DNA from: Candidatus Dadabacteria bacterium
GTDB taxonomy: Bacteria > Desulfobacterota_D > UBA1144 > Nemesobacterales > Mycalebacteriaceae
Length of the DNA stretch: 32,380 nt
Assembly: GCA_026708565.1 (NCBI GenBank)
Contig: JAPOUR010000042.1
Coordinates: 1-32,380 of the forward strand
Reading direction: 5' to 3'
Shown in pieces: positions 395 through 25,942 of this stretch. Numbering within the stretch: the stretch's first letter is position 1; each line of letters begins with the position of its first letter. Position numbers and translations under genes: made by a program. The notes below the pieces were generated by a model. That model searched no databases. It was not told where the DNA came from and saw only the letters and a list, made by a program, of their open reading frames with translations.

Positions 395-501
395 GTGGTA
401 TTTGTAGATTGAAATGGGTTGAAAAGATGGTAAAGTTGGCAATCAAGATGAAGCGGAAAAAACTGAAATGCAAAGGGTGCAGAGAGAGTATTGAGCAATG
501 A
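391..501 (+). CDS. 36-residue basic small ORF
   Basis: A 36-codon frame that reads MSGICRLKWVEKMVKLAIKM at its start and is rich in Lys and Arg, with three cysteines. It is joined on both sides by 4-base ATGA overlaps: its ATG overlaps the stop of the gene at 101-394, and its TGA (499-501) overlaps the ATG of the methyltransferase (498). There is no clear Shine-Dalgarno sequence, so expression would depend on translational coupling. It could be a real small protein or a coupling leader for the methylase. Its 5' two thirds resembles the decayed repeat at 27-81. Confidence 0.4.
   Translation: MSGICRLKWVEKMVKLAIKMKRKKLKCKGCRESIEQ
396..451 (+). repeat. Degenerate repeat, copy 2
   Basis: Partner of the repeat at 27-81. 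This copy lies in an open frame with an ATG at 391, while copy 1 is broken by stops. The two copies bracket the 97-residue ORF. Confidence 0.5.
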
Positions 502-1241
502 GCAGGTCATTAAAACTGCTTCCCGACACTCATGCGGGTAAGAACAAGATAAGAACCACCCAAGGGAACTGTTTTCTGCTGATCCAAACATTGGAGAACA
601 ACTCCATTGATCTGATAGCAACTGATCCTCCCTACGAAATAAACTATGAAAAAAATCAGTGGGACAGACCGAATTCTTTGAATTGGGACTTCTTGGCGAA
701 AGAATTTAAAAGGGTTTTGAAGCCCGGTGGCAGTCTGGTTGTTTTTCAGGGTTGGTCTCAGGTTTGTGAAACAAAATCCATACTGGACAAGTATTTTTCC
801 CTACAAAACTGGATTATCTACGACAGGGTCAAAGGCAGGGGAGCTAAAACGAATGTGGTATCAACCAGAGAAGACATACTCTGGTATACCTCAAGCGAAA
901 AACAATACACTTTCCACAAAATAGATTCCAACATAAAAAAGAAAACCGGAGGAATGGGAAAGAAAAACGGCAGGGAACACAGAGCCATTTCCAATGTGTG
1001 GACTGACATACCCCCGCTTGTTCCATGGTCGCGGGAAAAAGTTCCTCACCCCACACAGAAACCCGTATTTATAATGAAGAGGATATTGGAAATGTTTTCC
1101 AATGAAAATGATACCGTGCTGGATCCTTTTATGGGAAGTGGGACCACCGCTTTGGCGTGCAGGGATATGAGTAGAAATTTCGTGGGATTTGAACTGGACA
1201 AAGACTACTATAAACTTTGTGAGAGACGTTTAAATGAGTGA
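498..1241 (+). CDS. DNA adenine/cytosine-N4 methyltransferase, beta class
   Basis: A 247-residue site-specific DNA amino-methyltransferase of the N4/N6 MTase family. It should transfer a methyl group from S-adenosylmethionine to the exocyclic amine of adenine (N6) or cytosine (N4). The catalytic motif TDPPYE is at residues 42-47 (DPPY at 43-46). The SAM-binding motif DPFMGSGTT is at 209-217, after HPTQKP. This order (catalytic motif first, SAM motif last) defines the beta class. No separate target-recognition domain is obvious, and the length is typical of small type II methylases. The start overlaps the stop of the 36-residue ORF, and the stop TGA overlaps the start of the next gene by 8 bases, so methylase and nuclease-like protein are coupled. 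Target site unknown. The DNA looks AT-richer than the core, suggesting acquisition by transfer. Confidence 0.92.
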   Translation: MSRSLKLLPDTHAGKNKIRTTQGNCFLLIQTLENNSIDLIATDPPYEINYEKNQWDRPNSLNWDFLAKEFKRVLKPGGSLVVFQGWSQVCETKSILDKYFSLQNWIIYDRVKGRGAKTNVVSTREDILWYTSSEKQYTFHKIDSNIKKKTGGMGKKNGREHRAISNVWTDIPPLVPWSREKVPHPTQKPVFIMKRILEMFSNENDTVLDPFMGSGTTALACRDMSRNFVGFELDKDYYKLCERRLNE

Positions 1242-1800
1242 TGAATTCAAGCAGGGTTTATTGCGACTTCACACCAGACAATTTGGCTCTGTCGTGGAGG
1301 TCATTGTAAAATTGCTGGCCGACTATCAAGACAGCGAGAAACTTGATTTTGATTTGATTGATGAAAAAACCGGCAAGCGCATAGAGGTAAAGTCATCAAG
1401 AGTTCAAAGAAAGAGCAAACTCCCCAAGGATGATGCGGGAAAGATTTATGACTTTATCATAAACAACAGCAACCGAAGAAGATTTTTAAGACAAAATCAG
1501 GCAACAAAAGTTGACTTTGATTGCAACATACAACAGATAAAAACCGGATTGTTTGATGCAATGTATTACTTGCTGTTTTTCTATGACAAAATTGAAGTGT
1601 TCAGAATTGAGAAAAATGAGATTCTAAGCGATGTCAATATAAACTACAGCGACAAACAACACAGAGGAAACAAAGGAGAAGGGCAGTTCCACATCAATAC
1701 AAAAAACTACCAATACCATAAAGATTCCTACTTTCAGGGTTCAATCAGTTATGAAGACTTAGTGAAGATTCTGCGGAAAAACGGGAATGGAAAAAGCTAA
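1234..1800 (+). CDS. PD-(D/E)XK nuclease, putative type II restriction enzyme
   Basis: A 188-residue protein that I assign as the restriction partner of the upstream methylase, on position and an active-site-like motif. The sequence DFDLIDEKTGKRIEVKSSR carries acidic residues at D38, D40 and D43 and the pair E51-x-K53 on an expected beta strand, matching the D...(D/E)XK arrangement of restriction nucleases. Helical sequence precedes it (FGSVVEVIVKLLADY). The C-terminal half, rich in Lys, Asn and Tyr, may be the DNA-recognition part. The ATG (1234) lies inside the end of the methylase gene. The exact family is not recognised, so it could instead be an accessory nuclease subunit of the McrBC-like pair that follows. 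Cleavage has to be shown. Confidence 0.65.
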   Translation: MSDEFKQGLLRLHTRQFGSVVEVIVKLLADYQDSEKLDFDLIDEKTGKRIEVKSSRVQRKSKLPKDDAGKIYDFIINNSNRRRFLRQNQATKVDFDCNIQQIKTGLFDAMYYLLFFYDKIEVFRIEKNEILSDVNINYSDKQHRGNKGEGQFHINTKNYQYHKDSYFQGSISYEDLVKILRKNGNGKS

Positions 1801-1835
1801 TGCACACTGGAGCGAAGAAAGGATAGGATTGAAAA

Positions 1836-3971
1836 ATGCCTTATAAAACAGTTCACGACCTCTTTGAAGTGTGGGTGAAGCGTTGTTTGGAAAAAGACAA
1901 TTCTTTGCTTTTTGATGAGCCGGGGTTGTGGAATGAGGAAAATTTGAACATTGCAGTGAACTGTATGCTGGGTGACCGACGAACAGACAAAAGCAATTTC
2001 AAAATCAAATTAGAGAGTCAGTTTGGTGCTTACGATAAGAATCACAAAATATGGCTGTTGCTGTGTGAATTGCTTGCTTTGCACTACTGCCCTGACAGTA
2101 AGATGGGGAATAAGAATTGCTTTAAACTTACTATAGAAAAAGAGAGAAGTGATTACGAATTGTTGGAAGAAAAAATCCAGCAAATAATAAAGACGGAAGG
2201 AGTAGCTGACATTGGCCCCCAAAGCTACAGGCCGAAGCAAAACTTCAGCATTGGTTATTACGCATCTTTTGCCTTGAAATACAAAAAAGATGCAAAAATG
2301 AGAAAAACTGTAAGAAGCCTGAGAAACGGCGACCCCCTCTGGAAAGAGGCGGAGGAGATGTTTGACCGAACAAACATAATTGAAAGCAAATTCGTTATAG
2401 ATAAAAGGAAAACTCCTCATGTGCTCATTGTCCTTAACATGTTCTGCCACAAATATCATTGCAGGATGTTTAGCGGCGAACATCGGGGACATATTGTTTC
2501 CACTTTCTCAGATTATCTTCATGGTGATGAGAAAACGGAAAATGAAAAAATCTACTCCATAAGTGAGGCAATGAAGAAAGAAGACTCTTCTTTGCCCATT
2601 CATCTGGACATGGTAGATTTTTACCATCCCACTCTGAGGAAAAGGTGGGATCCATCTGAGGACAATACATACCAAATGCACCAAAAAGACAACACATTAC
2701 ACGAAAAAATATGGGATCCATCCGAGGACAATAAATACCTTGACACCCTGAAACAATTCCGTCAGATAATCTTTCAGGGACCACCCGGAACCGGCAAGAC
2801 CTACCAAGCAAAAAAGATTGCAGAAAAACTGACAGGGGAGAATACACAAGGCAACAAGTGGGAACTAATCCAGTTTCATCCGTCTTATAACTATGAAGAC
2901 TTTGTTAGAGGGATTCAAATACAGACAGAAAATGGTGAGACAACTTATGAAACAGTTGATCGTATTCTTGTTAACATGGCTGAAAAAGCGAGTGCAGATG
3001 AGAGCAGTGATTATGTTCTTATAATTGACGAAATCAACCGCGCTAATGTATCGGCTGTTTTGGGCGAACTTATCTATGCCTTGGAATATAGAGACAAGCC
3101 TATTCACATAACTTATTCTGTTAATGGAAATGCTGAGATAGCGATACCGGGGAATCTCTACATAATAGGAACTATGAACACCGCTGACCGCACAATCGGA
3201 CAGATAGATTATGCAGTCAGAAGAAGGTTTGCCTTTGAAAGTTTTCTGCCAGATGTGGAAGTCATTAAAAAAGAAAGTAAAGCCGACAATGCGGTCAAAC
3301 TCTTTAATATGGTTCAAGAAATGTTTGAAGGAGAAACTTATCTCTCTCCAGATTATCACAAAAACGATGTAGCAATTGGGCATACCTACTTCCTTGCTAA
3401 CAACAACGATGAATTGAAAAACAAAATTCAATATCAAGTCATTCCGATTCTTGAGGAATACTTGAAAGATGGCGTCTTGAAAAAAGAAGCAGAAGAGATA
3501 ATCAAACAAATAGAAGAAGAATTCAATCCACAAGATGACCCAACAGAAGAAATGGAAACTGAAGATGAAAACCTGAAGCGAGAGCGAAAATACTTTCGCT
3601 GGAAACATAAGGCAAACGGCACTACAGACAAAAACTACTGGGAAAAAGACCTCGGACCTAGGAGATTGCCGTGGACAATAGTGAAAGATTTTGTGAAACA
3701 TCAAAATCCTGTAAATGCGAGTGAATTAAAGATAACTTTTCCTGATGAAATTCATAAGGATTACGGTGTCTTTCAAATCCTCGAAAAGCATGAAAGATTT
3801 CTCTCAAAAGAAGATGAATACATTGAACTGGCAAGCGGAGAAAGAATAATGGTTTGCACACAATGGTCTGCCAATCCGGTAAAAAACAATCCGAAAGCCG
3901 TTTCATATAGGAGTTTTCAAGAATTTTTAAAAACATCACAAAATCTCGGCTACGAAATTGAGGAAGTCTAA
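1836..3971 (+). CDS. mcrB: McrB-like AAA+ GTPase
   Basis: A 711-residue protein whose C-terminal part from about residue 310 is an McrB-type AAA+ motor. Walker A GPPGTGKT is at 315-322, Walker B VLIIDEINRAN at 394-404, and the McrB-specific MNTADRT at 447-453, followed by an arginine pair (DYAVRRRF). In Escherichia coli McrBC the McrB motor hydrolyses GTP and drives DNA translocation, with McrC as nuclease. The N-terminal about 300 residues, which should recognise the target DNA, match nothing I know. A linker at about 271-300 contains a duplicated WDPSEDN segment. A charged insertion (about 545-600) separates the motor from the C-terminal tail. It starts 35 bases after the nuclease-like gene, behind GGATAGGA. 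Its target may be modified DNA or, as for LlaJI-type systems, an unmodified site. Confidence 0.9.
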   Translation: MPYKTVHDLFEVWVKRCLEKDNSLLFDEPGLWNEENLNIAVNCMLGDRRTDKSNFKIKLESQFGAYDKNHKIWLLLCELLALHYCPDSKMGNKNCFKLTIEKERSDYELLEEKIQQIIKTEGVADIGPQSYRPKQNFSIGYYASFALKYKKDAKMRKTVRSLRNGDPLWKEAEEMFDRTNIIESKFVIDKRKTPHVLIVLNMFCHKYHCRMFSGEHRGHIVSTFSDYLHGDEKTENEKIYSISEAMKKEDSSLPIHLDMVDFYHPTLRKRWDPSEDNTYQMHQKDNTLHEKIWDPSEDNKYLDTLKQFRQIIFQGPPGTGKTYQAKKIAEKLTGENTQGNKWELIQFHPSYNYEDFVRGIQIQTENGETTYETVDRILVNMAEKASADESSDYVLIIDEINRANVSAVLGELIYALEYRDKPIHITYSVNGNAEIAIPGNLYIIGTMNTADRTIGQIDYAVRRRFAFESFLPDVEVIKKESKADNAVKLFNMVQEMFEGETYLSPDYHKNDVAIGHTYFLANNNDELKNKIQYQVIPILEEYLKDGVLKKEAEEIIKQIEEEFNPQDDPTEEMETEDENLKRERKYFRWKHKANGTTDKNYWEKDLGPRRLPWTIVKDFVKHQNPVNASELKITFPDEIHKDYGVFQILEKHERFLSKEDEYIELASGERIMVCTQWSANPVKNNPKAVSYRSFQEFLKTSQNLGYEIEEV
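2646..2739 (+). repeat. 66-bp in-frame direct repeat inside mcrB
   Basis: Two near-identical 28-bp blocks (2646-2673 and 2712-2739) both begin TGGGATCCATC and end in ATACC. They differ at two positions and are offset by 66 bases (22 codons). They encode WDPSEDNTY and WDPSEDNKY just before the AAA+ domain. The near-identity at DNA level suggests a recent tandem duplication in the linker. Confidence 0.85.
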
Positions 3972-5291
3972 TTGTTCCACAAACCCGCATCACTTCAAAC
4001 AAAAGAGCATAAGATTGTTCCTTTCAGCAATGAGCAAGAGTATTTGTTCGAGTGGTGCGACACTCAAACATTAAGACAAAATAGTCCTGAATTTCTCGGC
4101 TTACATAAAAGACCGGAAGGTTTTGCCCCCAGCAGTTTCATTGGAGCAATCTGGCTCGGCAAGGAAGAAAACAGAATCCCCCTTATTGTCAGGTCAAAAT
4201 TCCCACAAATGGACTATATGTCTATGTATCTCGCCTGTGCAGAAGACCCGGTTGTCGGCTACCATCTGGGTGAATGTTTTCATTTCTGGCCTGAACAGCC
4301 ATTAATTGAGGCAGAAGACTTGCCAAGGCTCAGTGAACTCCTGATAGCTGCTTTCTTACGCGAACTGAACGAACTCTGCTCCCGGCATCTGCGCAAGCAC
4401 TTTGAGAGAGAAACGAACAACCTACAGGGCAAAGTAAAGGGAAAGATACTTTTACATGCACAAGTCAAACAAAACCTTGTCCACGGGCGCAATGACAGGG
4501 TTTTCTGCTCTTATCAGGTCATCAATGATGATATTGCCGAAAACCGCGCTTTGAGAGCCGCGCTTGAGCAATCAGCGAAGTTTATCAATGCAAAACTTGA
4601 TCCCTACGGCAAGTTTTCAGTATTGAATCGCTGGATACACTCAAGCCGTTCAGCCCTCTCCGGCGTTTCCGTTGTCAAGGTCAATCGGGCGGATTTCCGT
4701 AATCTGCGGTCTCGCGGTTCTTTCTTACACTATAGCCGCGCCCTTGAACTTGCAAAGTTTGTCCTTTTGCGCCTCGGGGCAGACCCTCACGCCGAAATCA
4801 AACAAGAAAACATCGTCGCCACCCCTCCCTTTGCCATAAACAGCGCTGAACTGTTTGAAAGATATACAGAAAAAGTGTTGAGGGAAAAGCACGCTATGCT
4901 GGAAGCAGGTTATGAGGATAAGGATACTTACGGAGACAAAGAAGGATTTAATGTTAGAGTACGCCCGGATTTTTGGGTTTCTGAGACTTCAAACAAACCT
5001 GCAAAAATTTTTGACGCAAAATACAAGTCAATAAAAGATGAACGAAATCCAAAACCTTTACAAACAGATATATTCCAGGTCGTTTCTTATTCCAGACATG
5101 AGTCTTTTATTTCAAAAAGATTAAAATGCACAAATACCGACAACATTGAACTTGCCCTTGTTTATCCGAATTTTGAACAGCAAGAGGAAATCAAGGAAAT
5201 AAAAACGGACAACTCCTTTTTGTCGCCCCTGAAAATGCTGTTTGTTAAATGTCCGGCGATAAAAAAGGAAATTATACGGGAAGCCGCTTGA
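3972..5291 (+). CDS. mcrC: McrC-like nuclease subunit
   Basis: A 439-residue McrC family protein, partner of the preceding GTPase. In the family, McrC binds the McrB ring, stimulates GTP hydrolysis and carries the PD-(D/E)XK nuclease. Here the catalytic region has RPDFWV (D333) and KIFDAKYK (D348-x-K350), with an expected nearby Glu in AELFERYTE. The N-terminal half holds the usual McrC scaffold (GKVKGKILLHAQVKQN, DIAENRALRAAL). The start is a TTG placed directly after the mcrB stop (3969-3971), with GAGGAAG just upstream, so translation is probably coupled. The gene ends at 5291, immediately abutting the stop of the convergent biotin-carrier gene, leaving no room for a terminator. Confidence 0.9.
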   Translation: MFHKPASLQTKEHKIVPFSNEQEYLFEWCDTQTLRQNSPEFLGLHKRPEGFAPSSFIGAIWLGKEENRIPLIVRSKFPQMDYMSMYLACAEDPVVGYHLGECFHFWPEQPLIEAEDLPRLSELLIAAFLRELNELCSRHLRKHFERETNNLQGKVKGKILLHAQVKQNLVHGRNDRVFCSYQVINDDIAENRALRAALEQSAKFINAKLDPYGKFSVLNRWIHSSRSALSGVSVVKVNRADFRNLRSRGSFLHYSRALELAKFVLLRLGADPHAEIKQENIVATPPFAINSAELFERYTEKVLREKHAMLEAGYEDKDTYGDKEGFNVRVRPDFWVSETSNKPAKIFDAKYKSIKDERNPKPLQTDIFQVVSYSRHESFISKRLKCTNTDNIELALVYPNFEQQEEIKEIKTDNSFLSPLKMLFVKCPAIKKEIIREAA

Positions 5292-7296: not shown

Positions 7297-8856
7297 TCAG
7301 AGAGGAATGTTTCCGTGCTTTCTCGGCGGATTGGTCTTCCTCTTTCCGTCAAGCATTGCAAACGCCGAGGCAACGTTCCTTCTGGTGTCCTCCGGCATGA
7401 TTATGCGGTCAATAAATCCGAGTTCCGCCGCCCTGTAGGGGTTGGCAAAATTGCTTCTGTATTCTTCCGTAAGGCGCGCCCTTTCGGCGTCCGGGTCTTT
7501 TGCCTCGGCTATCTGCGAGCGGGAAATTATGTTGACCGCCCCCTCCGAACCCATAACCGCTATCTCCGTGCCGGGGTAGGCAAGGTTGATGTCTCCCCGG
7601 ATGTGCTTTGAAGACATAACGTCATAAGCCCCGCCGTAGGCTTTTCTTGTTATCACGGTAACCCTCGGCACGGTCGCCTCGCAGTATGCGTAAAGCAGTT
7701 TCGCGCCGTGCCTTATGATGCCGCCCCACTCCTGCCCTGTTCCCGGAAGGAAGCCCGGAACGTCAACAAGAGACAGAAGCGGAATGTTGAAGCAGTCGCA
7801 AAACCGGACAAAGCGCGCCGCCTTTACGGATGCGTCTATGTCAAGGCAGCCGGCGAGAACCATGGGCTGGTTGCCCACAACGCCCGCAACCCTGCCGCCC
7901 ACGCGCGCAAACCCGATGACCATGTTTTTGCCGAAATGCTCCTGAACCTCAAGAAAGCGCGAGTCGTCAACGATTCTCTTTATGACCTCTTTCATGTCGT
8001 AGGGTTTGTTCGGGTTTTCCGGAATCAGGTCCGCTATCTCGCCGGTGGCGCGGTCAACCGGGTCATCGCTTTCGGCGGAGGGCGGGTCTTCCATGTTGTT
8101 TGAAGGCAGGAATGAGAGAAGTTCCCTTATTATCTCTATTGACTCCTCGTCATTTGCGGCGGAGAAATGCGCCACGCCGCTCTTGGAGTTGTGCACTCCG
8201 GCGCCGCCGAGGTCTTCCGAGGTTACGTCCTCATGGGTTACGGCTTTTATCACATCCGGCCCCGTTATGAACATGTAGCTGGTGTCTTTTGACATAAGGG
8301 TAAAGTCCGTCATTGCGGGCGAGTAAACCGCGCCGCCCGCGCACGGGCCCATGATGGCGGAGATTTGGGGAATAACGCCGGAGGCGAGCGCGTTTCTCTG
8401 GAATATCTCGCCGTATCCGGCGAGGCTTTCAACGCCCTCCTGTATCCTTGCGCCGCCCGAATCGTTAAGCCCGATAACGGGAGCGCCGGTCTCAACGGCC
8501 ATGTCCATAATTTTGCATATCTTTCTGCCGTGAATCATCCCCAGAGAGCCGCCGAAAACGGTGAAGTCCTGCGCGAAAACAAAAACTTTCCTGCCATCCA
8601 CCGTTCCGTGGCCGGTTACCACGCCGTCTCCGAGGAACTTTTTGTCTTCCATCCCGAAGTCTTTGCACCTGTGGACGACAAACTTGTCCATTTCCTCAAA
8701 AGTGCCTTTGTCAAGAAGGAGTTCTATACGCTCGCGCGCGGTCAGTTTGCCGACTTCGTGCTGGCGGTCTATGCGCGCCTTGCCGCCGCCCAGTTCCGCT
8801 TCCCGCTCCTTCTGCTTGAGTATCCGAATGTTGTCTTTGGTCTCTTTGTCGCCCAT
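7297..8856 (-). CDS. Carboxyltransferase subunit, propionyl-CoA carboxylase type
   Basis: A 519-residue carboxyltransferase of the PccB/MmdA family. It transfers the carboxyl group from carboxybiotin to an acyl-CoA, most likely propionyl-CoA to give methylmalonyl-CoA. Both crotonase-like halves are present: the acyl-CoA half has [18 protein letters not shown] and [12 protein letters not shown], and the carboxybiotin half has [14 protein letters not shown] and [12 protein letters not shown] chose the ATG at 8856 (MGDKETKDN): GGAG lies upstream, and the further in-frame 22 residues back to 8922 look non-conserved. The other two subunits follow directly. The gene lies about 140 bases behind the Nmad-type cassette, with an inverted repeat between. 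Other short acyl-CoAs are possible substrates. Confidence 0.9.
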
Positions 8857-8935
8857 AAAAACGCTCCGCCCGGCGGGAGTAAACAAGACGGCAAATATAC
8901 CGAAAGCGGCGGGTTTCCGCAAGTTGTTTTACCGC

Positions 8936-8995: not shown

Positions 8996-9724
8996 TTAGG
9001 GGTTGTTGCTATGCAACAGTCGCGGGTTCTCGTTTTGAAGCCAGTTGTAAAAGCGTTCAGCGTTTAAAAACAGCGGCGGAGTTGCGCTCCGTTGCAGATA
9101 GCCGTTTTTGACGGACAGACCGCCCCACTGTTCCAGCAGGGGCTTTGTTACGCGATATGCCCCCTCTCTGTATTCTCCTATCCGAATGTATCGGGCAAAC
9201 CGCCCGGATTTGCCTTTCTTGCCTCTAACCACAATGTCTGTGGGTTCGGACGGAGAGTTGCGTGTGTGGGCGTTTTCATCCCGCTTTGAGGCGGAGATGT
9301 CTTTCACAGGTGAAATGTCTTCCACCGTCAGCAACCCTATAAGCGCATAGACGAGTTCGTTTTTTGTTACGGGTCTTAACGAGGCAAAGAAAACCACCAA
9401 GTCATCCTCTCTGAAAGTCAGCAGGTTTTTTCCTCTGCGGGCGGTGTCTCCGTAGGTAAGGTTTTCAAAGTCAGGGTCAAGGTGCATGCGCTGATCCGTC
9501 AGACATTCGGGGAGAAAAATATCGCAGTTGTTGCGTTTTGAAAATCCGTCCAATACCGGAACAATCAAATCGGCATAGCGCTTTTCCATTCCGGGGAGGT
9601 TGGCGGTTTTTGTCTGTTTAATCGGCACATAAACAAAATCGCCCGTCTGCGGGTTGCATGGGGCGTTCCAGTTGCCTGAATCGGCGGTTTGGTCTATTGC
9701 GACACGGATTAGGATTGCGCGCAT
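8996..9724 (-). CDS. Nmad3-like protein (putative nucleotide-modification associated)
   Basis: A 242-residue protein that I place, from memory of family patterns, near Nmad3 (nucleotide modification associated domain 3). That family was named in comparative genomics of DNA base-modification systems; no biochemical function is known to me. Visible features are the start MRAILIRVAIDQTADSGNWN with FVYVPI, the segment MHLDPDFENLTYGD (about 78-91), and DDLVVFFASLRPV followed by ALIGLLTVEDI, which resemble the HLDPD and GD-(L/V)-x-F-F-x-x-x-R pattern of the family. A Lys/Arg-rich loop (VVRGKKGKSGR) follows. The ATG at 9724 overlaps the end of the preceding gene by 16 bases. It is the third gene of the cassette, and the assignment is tentative. 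Confidence 0.6.
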   Translation of the reverse strand: MRAILIRVAIDQTADSGNWNAPCNPQTGDFVYVPIKQTKTANLPGMEKRYADLIVPVLDGFSKRNNCDIFLPECLTDQRMHLDPDFENLTYGDTARRGKNLLTFREDDLVVFFASLRPVTKNELVYALIGLLTVEDISPVKDISASKRDENAHTRNSPSEPTDIVVRGKKGKSGRFARYIRIGEYREGAYRVTKPLLEQWGGLSVKNGYLQRSATPPLFLNAERFYNWLQNENPRLLHSNNP

Positions 9725-10185
9725 TTACATCCATCCCCGGAAGACGGACAGTTATGATATTCTTTCATCAAACCCTCTATTTCATACCGTATTTTTTGGT
9801 CGGAAAGATTTTTTGACATAATATAACGCCGATGTTTTCCTTCGGGAAAAAGGTGGTCATTCAGCCAAGGGGCGCATTCCGAAAGTAGCGGTCCTTTTTC
9901 GTTCATGAGGCAAAAATGCTCAAAAGTAACAAGCGGACCTCTAAACCGTTTTTTAGTTTCCGAGCATGTTTTACCTGCCGGAGGATCTTTTTTATGGGGA
10001 CAAATTCCAACCCAAGTAAGTCTTTGAGCAATATTTTCACAACCTTTCCATGGAGATTTTCCTCCTATGCCTAAAACAGCGTCGTAATTGTAGTTTCTGA
10101 AACTCCCCATGCAATCGCACACTCCGAAAGTCCCGCATTCGCAAGGATCGTTAATATGTGTTCTTATATAAATAAACACATTCAC
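9709..10185 (-). CDS. Cysteine-rich conserved protein of the Nmad cassette
   Basis: A 158-residue protein with 12 cysteines and no family name I can give. The N-terminus has FIYIRTHINDPCECGTFGVC (C15, C17, C23) and then DCMG (C25). A glycine-rich DAVLGIGGKSPWKG motif, a WVGICPHK motif and RGPLVTFEHF follow. The C-terminus ends CPSSGDGCKC. The FxYxRTH start and DCMG...DAVxGxGG pattern look like a conserved family I have seen beside Nmad-type genes, but this is memory, not a search. The cysteines suggest metal or Fe-S binding. The start overlaps the Nmad2-like stop by 4 bases (ATGA), and the end overlaps the Nmad3-like start, so all three proteins are coupled. Confidence 0.7.
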   Translation of the reverse strand: MNVFIYIRTHINDPCECGTFGVCDCMGSFRNYNYDAVLGIGGKSPWKGCENIAQRLTWVGICPHKKDPPAGKTCSETKKRFRGPLVTFEHFCLMNEKGPLLSECAPWLNDHLFPEGKHRRYIMSKNLSDQKIRYEIEGLMKEYHNCPSSGDGCKCAQS

Positions 10186-10880
10186 GACTCTTCATCTTCC
10201 TCATCATCCCTCTTATTCTGTTCGGCGCACAACTTCCTGAATTCCAATTCATCAATTTTATATTTCATCTGCGGTTCGTCAGACAGTTTGTTTGCTTCAA
10301 ACTTGTCCTCCAGCCATTGCTCAAATCTGCTAATCAGCGTTGCGGCTTTACAAACTTTGTAACCTCTGTTTCCGGGAATTATCGCCCTAAGGTAGTGCGG
10401 CATTATTTTGGGGTTTTCTCCAAAATAGTAAAACTCACTTGAAAGAAGAACATTCTCCCCGCTCAAATCCGTTTTTATGTTTGATTCATTATGAACGCCC
10501 TTTCTCTGCAAAGGCTGTTCACCGCCTTCCGAATAATCATAGATACAGTCTCCCACCTTTTTCCTGTAATCCTTGGAACGCCTCTCCGGTATCTTCCCCT
10601 CAAGATCCTTCCGGCAAAACTCATCGTATTCCTCAAGAGTCATCTTGTCCGTAATCTTCATCGCACAAACAACACGACCTGAGAAATCGCGTTTCCTGTC
10701 CTCCAGTTTTGCATTCTTTGAACCCGTTCCGACAACCCAGTCTCCGACGGACGCCGCTTTTCTAATTCCGGGCTTGCAAACTGCCAATGTGCAAACATCA
10801 AAAAAAGGATTCGGCGACAAGCCGCAGTCGTATCTCAACATATAGGAATAAAGACATTTCGCTTTTTTCTTCACAGCCAT
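10182..10880 (-). CDS. Nmad2-like protein (putative nucleotide-modification associated)
   Basis: A 232-residue protein matching my memory of the Nmad2 family: LYSYMLRYDCGLSPNPFFDV followed by CTLAVCKPGIRKAASVGDW and VVGTGSK (about residues 10-56), then GDCIYDY and VLLSSEFYYFGE. The family was predicted to act with DNA base-modification enzymes; its role is not established, and a reader or processing role for modified bases is inference. The C-terminus is highly charged (DDEEDEES). I chose the ATG at 10880 because GGAAG lies just upstream; a GTG nine bases earlier is possible. The start lies inside the last codons of coaE, so the cassette is transcribed with the gltX-coaE genes. Confidence 0.72.
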   Translation of the reverse strand: MAVKKKAKCLYSYMLRYDCGLSPNPFFDVCTLAVCKPGIRKAASVGDWVVGTGSKNAKLEDRKRDFSGRVVCAMKITDKMTLEEYDEFCRKDLEGKIPERRSKDYRKKVGDCIYDYSEGGEQPLQRKGVHNESNIKTDLSGENVLLSSEFYYFGENPKIMPHYLRAIIPGNRGYKVCKAATLISRFEQWLEDKFEANKLSDEPQMKYKIDELEFRKLCAEQNKRDDEEDEES

Positions 10881-11467
10881 TTCTTCCACAGCCTCCCTAT
10901 CTCCGCTCTCAAACTTTCCATTCCCGCCGAATTCTCAATAACAAAATCGTAATCCGGATTGCGCCCTTCCTGCGATTTCAACCTTTTCCTCGCCTCCGCC
11001 TCATCAAGTTTATCCCTTTCCGCTATTCTTTCAATCTTTTTTTCCTCGCTCGCCTCAACCAGAACAAGGTGGTCCACCATCTCCCCCAGAACCCCGCCGC
11101 GAGACAGCAGCGCCGCCTCAATCACCACCGCCCGCGCGCCGGAAGAAACCGCCTTTTCCACCCGCGCGGCTATCTCATCCCTGATTTCCGGGTGGGTTAT
11201 TGCCTCAAGCGCCTTTCTCTTCTTCTCGTCCGAAAAAACCTCAGAGCCAAGTTTCCCCCGGTCTATCTCCCCGTCCGCGCCGATGACGCCGGAGCCAAAC
11301 CGCCGCGCTATCCGCTCAAAAGCCGGTTTTCCGGGCTTGGTAACAAAACGCGAAACCTCATCCGCATCTATAACACGCGCCCCCAAATCCCTGAACATCC
11401 CCGCCGCCGCGGTCTTGCCCGCGCAAACATTCCCGCAAAGCCCTATTATTACGGCTTTTTCACTCAT
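10871..11467 (-). CDS. coaE: Dephospho-CoA kinase
   Basis: A 198-residue enzyme of the last step of coenzyme A synthesis, phosphorylating the 3'-OH of the ribose of dephospho-CoA with ATP. The P-loop GNVCAGKTAA is at about 12-21 (the usual form is GxxxxGKS/T). DADEVSR follows, then FVTKPGKPAFERIARRFG and the HPEIRDE segment, and a late ERDKLDEAEARKRLKSQ typical of the lid. The start overlaps the end of gltX by 4 bases (ATGA). The end overlaps the start of the Nmad2-like gene, so the cassette depends on this operon. Confidence 0.93.
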   Translation of the reverse strand: MSEKAVIIGLCGNVCAGKTAAAGMFRDLGARVIDADEVSRFVTKPGKPAFERIARRFGSGVIGADGEIDRGKLGSEVFSDEKKRKALEAITHPEIRDEIAARVEKAVSSGARAVVIEAALLSRGGVLGEMVDHLVLVEASEEKKIERIAERDKLDEAEARKRLKSQEGRNPDYDFVIENSAGMESLRAEIGRLWKKWL

Positions 11468-24828: not shown

Positions 24829-25044
24829 ATGGTAAGTTACGCCCAAAGGAAAATCGGGATGGAGTTGTGCTTGGAAATACTTGAGGTCGGGACCGCCATT
24901 CTTACCTTAGTGGCGATATTGCTCGGAATAGCCGGAGGCATGATGCGGAACGGCGGTCTAATTATGATTGCAGTATGCTTGTTTGTTGTTGTTTATGTTC
25001 TCACATCAATTTACATACCGACGGTTACACCTACTCCCAAATGA
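24829..25044 (+). CDS. Small two-helix membrane protein beside the Mrr nuclease
   Basis: A 71-residue protein with two hydrophobic stretches, at about 13-38 (ILEVGTAILTLVAILLGIAG) and 43-64 (LIMIAVCLFVVVYVLTSIYI), joined by a short MMRNGG turn and ending in a Thr/Pro-rich tail. I do not recognise a family. AAAGGGG precedes the ATG. It lies 7 bases before the Mrr-like gene and belongs to the same AT-rich block, so the two probably arrived together. It could be a membrane anchor or toxin-like partner, or an unrelated small gene. Confidence 0.6.
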   Translation: MVSYAQRKIGMELCLEILEVGTAILTLVAILLGIAGGMMRNGGLIMIAVCLFVVVYVLTSIYIPTVTPTPK

Positions 25045-25051
25045 GAACATT

Positions 25052-25942
25052 ATGAGTGAGCGAATTAAAATTACCGAAATGCCACAAATGCCTTACTTTC
25101 ACTGCTTTGCTCTGCTTGCAGTTCACAAATTAGGTGGTTCATCCAAAACAAAGGATACTATTGAAGAAATAATGAATTTTTTTGATTTTGAAGAAAATCT
25201 TTTAGAAGAAACTTTAGAGAATGGCAAGAGTAGATTGAAGGAAAGAATTCGTTTTGCAATGGTTGATCTCAAAATGGCTGACTATTTTGCCAAAGACAGC
25301 AAAAGAGGTCTATATCAATTAAGCGACAAAGGGAAATTAAGTATTCAGCAACTAGTTCCTCTAGACCCGACAGAATTCAGAGAAATTGGAGAGTCAATTC
25401 GTAAAGATGTGCAACAGCAAGTGGCAAGGGTACAAAAAGAAAAAAAGAATAAAGAGGCTTTAGAGATAAATGATGAAGACTTTAGCGAAGAAAGTGAAGA
25501 GGAAATGGAATACTTAAATGACTTGGAAATAATTCAGGAAATAAATCCATATTCCTTTGAAAGGCTTTGTGCGCTTCTTTTCAAAAAGGTCGGATATGAA
25601 GATGTTCAAACTACGCAAAAATCCGGCGATGGCGGCTATGACGGAGTTGGCTATTTAGTTTTCGGATTGGTAAGATTTAAGGTTGCTTTCCAAGCAAAAA
25701 AATACAAAAACGACAATAAGATTGGACCCGGTGAAATACGGGAATTTTCTGGAACAATGAAACAACAGGCTGCGGAAAAAGGGGTTTTTATTACAACATC
25801 CGACTTTACCCAGAAAGCCAAAGAAAGCGGGCTTGAACTTGGAATTGAACTGATAAACGGCGAGAAGTTAATTGGACTGTTACAAAAGCACCAAATCGGG
25901 TATTCCCAAAGGATTGACAAGAAGTTCTTTGAAGAACTCTGA
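25052..25942 (+). CDS. Mrr-type (type IV) restriction endonuclease
   Basis: A 296-residue protein with an N-terminal Mrr-type winged-helix domain (about 1-95, ending LYQLSDKGKLSIQQL), an acidic coiled linker (about 120-155) and a C-terminal Mrr_cat PD-(D/E)XK domain. The nuclease motif is FERLCALLFKKVGYEDV, then SGDGGYDG at 191-198 (catalytic D197) and FQAKKY (K216), followed by GPGEIREFSG and KGVFITTSDF. Family members cleave DNA carrying foreign methylation. I chose the ATG at 25052 (MSERIKIT), since the frame before it overlaps the previous gene and encodes unrelated sequence. The gene is markedly AT-richer than midA and the gene that follows. Confidence 0.9.
   Translation: MSERIKITEMPQMPYFHCFALLAVHKLGGSSKTKDTIEEIMNFFDFEENLLEETLENGKSRLKERIRFAMVDLKMADYFAKDSKRGLYQLSDKGKLSIQQLVPLDPTEFREIGESIRKDVQQQVARVQKEKKNKEALEINDEDFSEESEEEMEYLNDLEIIQEINPYSFERLCALLFKKVGYEDVQTTQKSGDGGYDGVGYLVFGLVRFKVAFQAKKYKNDNKIGPGEIREFSGTMKQQAAEKGVFITTSDFTQKAKESGLELGIELINGEKLIGLLQKHQIGYSQRIDKKFFEEL

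What the first reader, a model, noticed from the sequence alone, without database searches (positions are those of the whole stretch)
8996..10880. Nmad2-like / Cys-rich / Nmad3-like cassette wedged into a housekeeping operon
Seen: three genes read as one unit. The Nmad2-like start lies inside coaE, the next junction is a 4-base ATGA overlap, and the third is a 16-base overlap. They separate gltX-coaE from the carboxylase genes. Known: Nmad families were predicted by comparative genomics to act with DNA base-modification systems, without known activity. Inference: here they form a stand-alone three-protein system, without a hypermodification enzyme beside them, possibly for recognising or processing modified nucleotides or for phage defence. 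This is the best candidate for an undescribed system in the window.
Basis: partly seen in the sequence, partly recalled or inferred. Interest (0 to 1): 0.75.

Follow-up and report, generated by a model that had tools for sequence, protein, structure and literature searches.

The report
Nmad2–Cys-rich–Nmad3 accessory gene cassette
Three overlapping bacterial genes, two from little-studied families linked to modified DNA bases and one from an unnamed family, form an accessory block inside a housekeeping operon that probably recognises modified nucleotides, possibly for phage defence, although no activity has been shown.

Summary
Profile searches confirm Nmad2 (PF18753, E 1.6e-61) and Nmad3 (PF18754, E 3.2e-20). 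The middle gene has no Pfam, NCBIfam, PHROG or PADLOC match, but relatives lie in bacteria, a plasmid and viral contigs (33-42% identity). The start inside coaE and the 16-base overlap are right; the 4-base overlap is GTGA, not ATGA.

The exact trio was found nowhere else. Both of its pairings recur: Nmad2 beside Nmad3 at four other loci (plus one truncated), and the Cys-rich gene beside Nmad3 at two intact and two broken loci. Elsewhere Nmad2 usually follows a ThsB-type TIR gene; the cassette has none, and its Nmad2 belongs to a separate TIR-free clade. The cassette is AT-richer than its operon and absent from a same-genus genome, which keeps a 24-codon relic of the Nmad3 tail after coaE: an old acquisition, later lost there.

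A good Nmad2 model resembles ASCH, EVE and YTH (PUA-like) folds, which bind modified bases or cut RNA. Best reading: an accessory, probably defence-type module reading modified nucleobases, with Nmad2 as reader. Enzymatic activity and defence are untested. New variant of a known kind.

The parts
10182..10889 (-). Nmad2 (PF18753), 235 aa from GTG 10889 or 232 aa from ATG 10880; predicted PUA-like (ASCH/EVE/YTH-type) fold
   Evidence: Pfam E 1.6e-61; AlphaFold2 pLDDT 84.6, pTM 0.81; Foldseek best hits ASCH/EVE/YTH
9709..10185 (-). Middle gene, 158 aa, 12 Cys, unnamed family; conserved Y-x-R-T-H-x(2)-D-P-x(3)-G-x-F-G-x(3)-C-M-G-x(2)-R ... G-x-G-G
   Evidence: No family hit; 33-42% identical relatives L017, L026-L031, L045 and a further relative L071
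8996..9724 (-). Nmad3 (PF18754), 242 aa
   Evidence: Pfam E 3.2e-20; L026 relative 46% identical including the C-terminal tail
8996..9073 (-). Nmad3 C-terminal tail whose relic survives just after coaE in same-genus genome G001
   Evidence: LFLNAERFYNWLQNENPRLLHSNNP* against relic FSNAERFYDWFQNQSPRLLRTNNS*
10871..11467 (-). coaE, whose 3' end overlaps the Nmad2 start; upstream side of the insertion site
   Evidence: CoaE Pfam E 1.3e-41
7297..8922 (-). Carboxyltransferase gene, downstream side of the insertion site
   Evidence: Carboxyl_trans Pfam E 5.5e-202; next to coaE in G001 and G017
498..5291 (+). Context only: DNA methylase, REase-like 188-aa protein, McrB-like AAA, McrC
   Evidence: Pfam and PADLOC; no match to these proteins in the stretch held beside the orthologous carboxylase genes of G001 or G017

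Best explanation
An accessory, horizontally acquired, defence-type module that recognises modified nucleobases. Nmad2 is the likely reader, with a PUA-like fold of the ASCH/EVE/YTH class (predicted). Nmad3 and the small Cys-rich protein are its usual or optional partners (supported by recurrent pairings). They probably form a complex that binds a modified base in foreign DNA or RNA, or a modified nucleotide, and removes it, cuts it or inhibits growth (inferred). The genes overlap coaE and each other, so co-transcription and coupled translation with the gltX-coaE operon are likely (inferred from the overlaps). Here the module stands without the TIR signalling enzyme that most Nmad2 relatives have.
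For: Family matches. Nmad2 next to Nmad3 in L056, L062, L076, L083 and truncated in L085; in a sample of 398 proteobacterial genomes Nmad3 occurs in 8, Nmad2 in 5, both in 2, adjacent both times (hypergeometric P 0.0034). Cys-rich gene next to Nmad3 in L017, L026 and, with broken genes, L027, L028. Defence-type surroundings: Nmad2 with ThsB TIR, MazG, uracil-DNA glycosylase, SIR2, SLOG; Cys-rich gene near Mrr (L017), type ISP restriction-modification (L071) and GmrSD/HNH (L030); Nmad2 close to Tet_JBP in phage contig L032. Nmad2 fold: best solved matches are ASCH, TRIP4-DNA, THYN1-5mC-DNA and YTH. Patchy spread: Nmad3 absent in the other 57 phylum genomes searched, lower GC.
Against: Foldseek E-values do not reach 0.001 (best 0.017 against PDB, probability 0.82) and TM-scores are 0.3-0.5, so the fold class is likely but no function follows. 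The trio itself was not found again. Several Nmad3 genes sit alone among housekeeping genes (L055, L057-L060); the similar contexts of L057-L059 suggest vertical inheritance, which does not suit a defence gene. No PADLOC model matches.
Confidence: 0.45

Rival explanations
1. RNA-directed or nucleoside-directed enzyme module. Nmad2 acts as an ASCH-type enzyme (a single-strand RNase like ZmASCH, or an amidohydrolase of modified cytidines like YqfB) and the partners tune it. It works in stress response or salvage of modified nucleosides rather than in DNA recognition.
For: Best solved match is Zymomonas ASCH, titled as having ribonuclease activity on single-stranded RNA (PMC5615036); YqfB of the ASCH superfamily acts on N4-acetylcytidine (PMC6972931). 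Nmad2 has many invariant polar residues (Y, D, N, C, K, R, H).
Against: ASCH is matched by fold only, at 5-10% identity. Most neighbours point to DNA modification and phage conflict, and the nearest phage relative lies close to a DNA-base oxygenase gene.
Confidence: 0.22
2. Partner half of a TIR-type (Thoeris-like) signalling system. Nmad2 is sensor or effector for a nucleotide signal made by a ThsB-type TIR enzyme, and in this genome the signal comes from the TIR gene on another contig, or the partner has been replaced by the Cys-rich protein and Nmad3.
For: ThsB TIR gene directly upstream of Nmad2 at 16 distinct loci. The window's genome has one ThsB_TIR gene, on contig C13 near type I restriction genes.
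Against: That TIR gene sits with a different partner set. The window's Nmad2 falls in a TIR-free clade with support 100/99. TIR-free Nmad2 genes are common, including all Nmad3-linked ones.
Confidence: 0.13
3. Passenger or decaying gene block with no present system-level function, tolerated at the end of an operon; the three genes are neighbours by chance.
For: Nmad3 absent in all other genomes of the phylum checked; deleted in G001, leaving a relic; broken copies in L027 and L028.
Against: All three frames are open, overlap tightly, and each pairing recurs in distant lineages in both gene orders.
Confidence: 0.12

Closest known systems
Nmad2 (PF18753) and Nmad3 (PF18754), nucleotide modification associated domains
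   Same: Two of the three proteins are members by profile score
   Different: A third, unnamed family sits between them; no base-modification enzyme is directly beside them
NMAD-containing defence candidates of DefensePredictor (PMC13092281)
   Same: The figure legends of validated systems and of predicted systems in that paper both list an NMAD domain
   Different: The text read does not say which Nmad family; thymidylate synthase, kinase, MazG and uracil-DNA glycosylase domains listed there are absent here
ThsB-TIR plus Nmad2 gene pairs on plasmids (this work)
   Same: Same Nmad2 family; gene pair in defence-like islands
   Different: No TIR here; different Nmad2 clade; Nmad3 and the Cys-rich protein instead
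EVE, YTH and ASCH (PUA-like) readers of modified bases (PMC7641849)
   Same: Predicted fold of Nmad2 and its association with modification-dependent conflict genes
   Different: No sequence-level match; extra elements; binding untested
McrBC and Mrr modification-dependent restriction
   Same: Presumed target class (modified DNA); present in the same window
   Different: The cassette has no recognisable nuclease or translocase

Membership tests
Nmad2 (PF18753) | Profile score above the curated cut-off over most of the domain | tested here: met
   207.7 bits against 26.1, profile positions 4-194 of 200
Nmad3 (PF18754) | Profile score above the curated cut-off over most of the domain | tested here: met
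   73.2 bits against 27, profile positions 1-200 of 247
Nmad2 family (for the Cys-rich protein) | Significant profile similarity to Nmad2 | tested here: not met
   hhalign E 0.0028 with probability 10.9 on one alignment pair; on larger sets score 20.5, beaten by 2 of 60 column shuffles
PUA-like superfamily (ASCH/EVE/YTH), for Nmad2 | Fold match to solved members | tested here: inconclusive
   Nearly all leading PDB matches are of this class but the best E is 0.017, TM 0.3-0.5; best viral match E 2.1e-3, probability 0.99
Thoeris-like TIR system | ThsB-type TIR gene adjacent | tested here: not met
   None in the cassette or beside it; one unlinked gene on C13
DNA hypermodification gene cluster | Base oxygenase, kinase, transferase or pyrophosphorylase beside the Nmad genes | tested here: not met
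   Immediate neighbours are coaE, gltX and carboxylase genes
Anti-phage defence system | Protection in a phage challenge | not testable with these tools
   Context only; no PADLOC match

The most novel reading that the evidence does not exclude
A three-component modified-nucleobase sensing and defence system in which the Cys-rich protein is a new family (possibly a shrunken, very distant Nmad2-like domain) that joins Nmad2 and Nmad3 and takes the place of the TIR partner.
Probability: 0.22. Interest if true: 0.7.

Novelty: new variant of a known kind. Interest (0 to 1): 0.5.

Why it matters
Nmad2 and Nmad3 are named only by their company. Recurrent adjacency of the two, an unnamed third family that also pairs with Nmad3, and a confident PUA-like model of Nmad2 turn a vague label into a small testable module with a concrete prediction: modified-base binding by Nmad2. 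The wide Nmad2-TIR pairing offers a second, independent handle on function.

Tried and rejected
Phage records: no tblastn match for Nmad2, Nmad3 or the Cys-rich protein. Search for the trio: 387 relatives with the Cys-rich profile gave one other genome, G378, with the gene alone; 399 proteobacterial genomes gave G102 and G404; no trio. Homology of Nmad2 to Nmad3: none. Homology of the Cys-rich protein to Nmad2: suggestive motif, not significant against shuffles. Structure of the Cys-rich protein: pLDDT 57, no fold match. Nmad3 sequence profile against solved structures: weak METTL3 similarity at E 0.015, treated as chance. Promoter and terminator scans: no more than shuffles. The idea that the 24-codon stretch in G001 was coincidental was dropped because the L026 Nmad3 has the same tail and the stop codon is in the same place. 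The 2013 paper that, from memory, named the Nmad families is not in the library, so whether it already lists the Nmad2-Nmad3 pair could not be checked.

Full report
OBSERVATION. The three minus-strand ORFs are present and open. Nmad2 scores 207.7 bits and Nmad3 73.2 bits, both well above Pfam's cut-offs; the middle protein matches nothing in Pfam, NCBIfam, PHROGs or PADLOC. Nmad3 also has a PHROG match of unknown function at E 2.7e-7. The Nmad2 start (GTG 10889 or ATG 10880) lies in coaE. The next junction is a 4-base GTGA overlap, not ATGA, and the last is a 16-base overlap.

SITE AND HISTORY. In the same-genus genome G001 and the same-order genome G017, the order glutaredoxin-gltX-coaE-carboxyltransferase-biotin carboxylase is intact without the cassette. 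The cassette is AT-richer than the operon (GC 0.44, 0.42, 0.51 against 0.56-0.57). G001 is not a clean empty site: directly at the end of its coaE lie 24 codons that match the last codons of the window's Nmad3 (17 of 24 residues identical, 78% at DNA level, same stop position). That tail is a real part of Nmad3, because the Nmad3 of L026, from a distant lineage, ends the same way (SFLDPARFIEWFEEQGPELLATNNP). The simplest history is acquisition before the two species split and later deletion in G001. No other genome of the 58 in the phylum has Nmad3; G017 has an unlinked solo Nmad2.

WHAT TRAVELS WITH WHAT. Nmad2 relatives on plasmids, genomes and viral contigs often follow a ThsB-type TIR gene (PF08937): 16 distinct loci, usually abutting or overlapping. 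These stand in islands with MazG-type pyrophosphohydrolase, uracil-DNA glycosylase, SLOG, SIR2, patatin and further TIR genes. The Nmad2 tree places the window's gene with G017 and phage contig L032 (support 100/99), away from the TIR-linked set; in L032 a Tet_JBP oxygenase gene lies just upstream, one small gene away. Nmad2 is next to Nmad3 in L056 and L062, L076 and L083, in either order, and as a truncated copy in L085. In a sample of 398 proteobacterial genomes (G102, chosen because it was a hit, left out) Nmad3 occurs in 8, Nmad2 in 5 and both in 2, adjacent in both; P is 0.0034 for co-occurrence alone. The Cys-rich gene is next to Nmad3 on Cupriavidus necator H16 plasmid pHG1 (L017, where the Cys-rich gene has no listed CDS), in L026 in reverse order, and as broken pairs in L027 and L028. 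It also occurs without a detected Nmad3 in L029-L031, L045 and L071; L030 and L071 lie beside GmrSD/HNH and type ISP restriction genes. The window thus joins two pairings that each recur, but the trio was not seen twice.

FOLD. AlphaFold2 on 12 sequences gives Nmad2 at pLDDT 84.6 and pTM 0.81. Against the PDB the leading matches are ASCH (E 0.017, probability 0.82), TRIP4 ASCH with DNA, THYN1 (EVE) with 5mC DNA, then YTH and other EVE proteins. Against viral models the best has probability 0.99, and several are labelled ASCH. None reaches E 0.001, so the PUA-like class is probable rather than proven, and it fits both base reading and RNase or amidohydrolase chemistry (PMC7641849, PMC5615036, PMC6972931). 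The Cys-rich model is too weak to use. Its similarity to Nmad2 (Y..TH..D.P..G..C..R..GxGG) is suggestive but not significant.

MECHANISM. Shown: family identity, overlaps, recurrent pairings, patchy and lost distribution. Predicted: PUA-like Nmad2. Inferred: the three act as a complex; Nmad2 binds a modified base; the outcome is restriction of modified foreign nucleic acid or growth arrest. That the window also carries a methylase-McrBC cluster (498-5291) and an Mrr nuclease (24968-25942) shows a genome invested in modification-related restriction, but no functional link to the cassette is shown.

NOVELTY. Nmad families are known and NMAD-bearing defence candidates are published (PMC13092281). 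What appears unreported in the sources I could read is the Nmad2-Nmad3 pairing, the unnamed Cys-rich family tied to Nmad3, and the PUA-like model of Nmad2. The founding paper was not available, so priority is unsettled.

Noticed in passing
window 498-5291 (+): DNA methylase, small REase-like protein, McrB-like AAA and McrC in one run, next to the biotin-carrier gene; no match to them in the stretch held beside the orthologous genes of G001 and G017.
   Followed up: partly
window 24968-25942 (+): Mrr_cat restriction endonuclease (type IV-like by PADLOC) beside housekeeping genes such as mnmE.
   Followed up: no
plasmid loci L004-L011, L013-L015; L034, L042, L072: ThsB-type TIR gene directly upstream of Nmad2, a widespread pair, often with MazG and uracil-DNA glycosylase genes next to it; looks like a system in its own right.
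   Followed up: partly
L037 1140-1637, L040 5576-6010: Instead of a TIR gene, an unnamed 144-165 aa protein without Pfam match sits directly before Nmad2, with uncharacterised or MazG_C genes around.
   Followed up: no
L017 4980-5504: Cys-rich family gene on Cupriavidus necator H16 pHG1 has no CDS in the gene table at hand although it is conserved and precedes an Nmad3 gene.
   Followed up: yes
L094 5893-10032 (own genome C13): ThsB-type TIR, membrane protein and 1038-aa TIR-like protein beside a type I restriction locus.
   Followed up: no
L033, L062, L074, L026, L029, L030: Several TIR-free Nmad2 proteins and most Cys-rich family proteins end in short Cys-containing tails, which may bind metal.
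   Followed up: no
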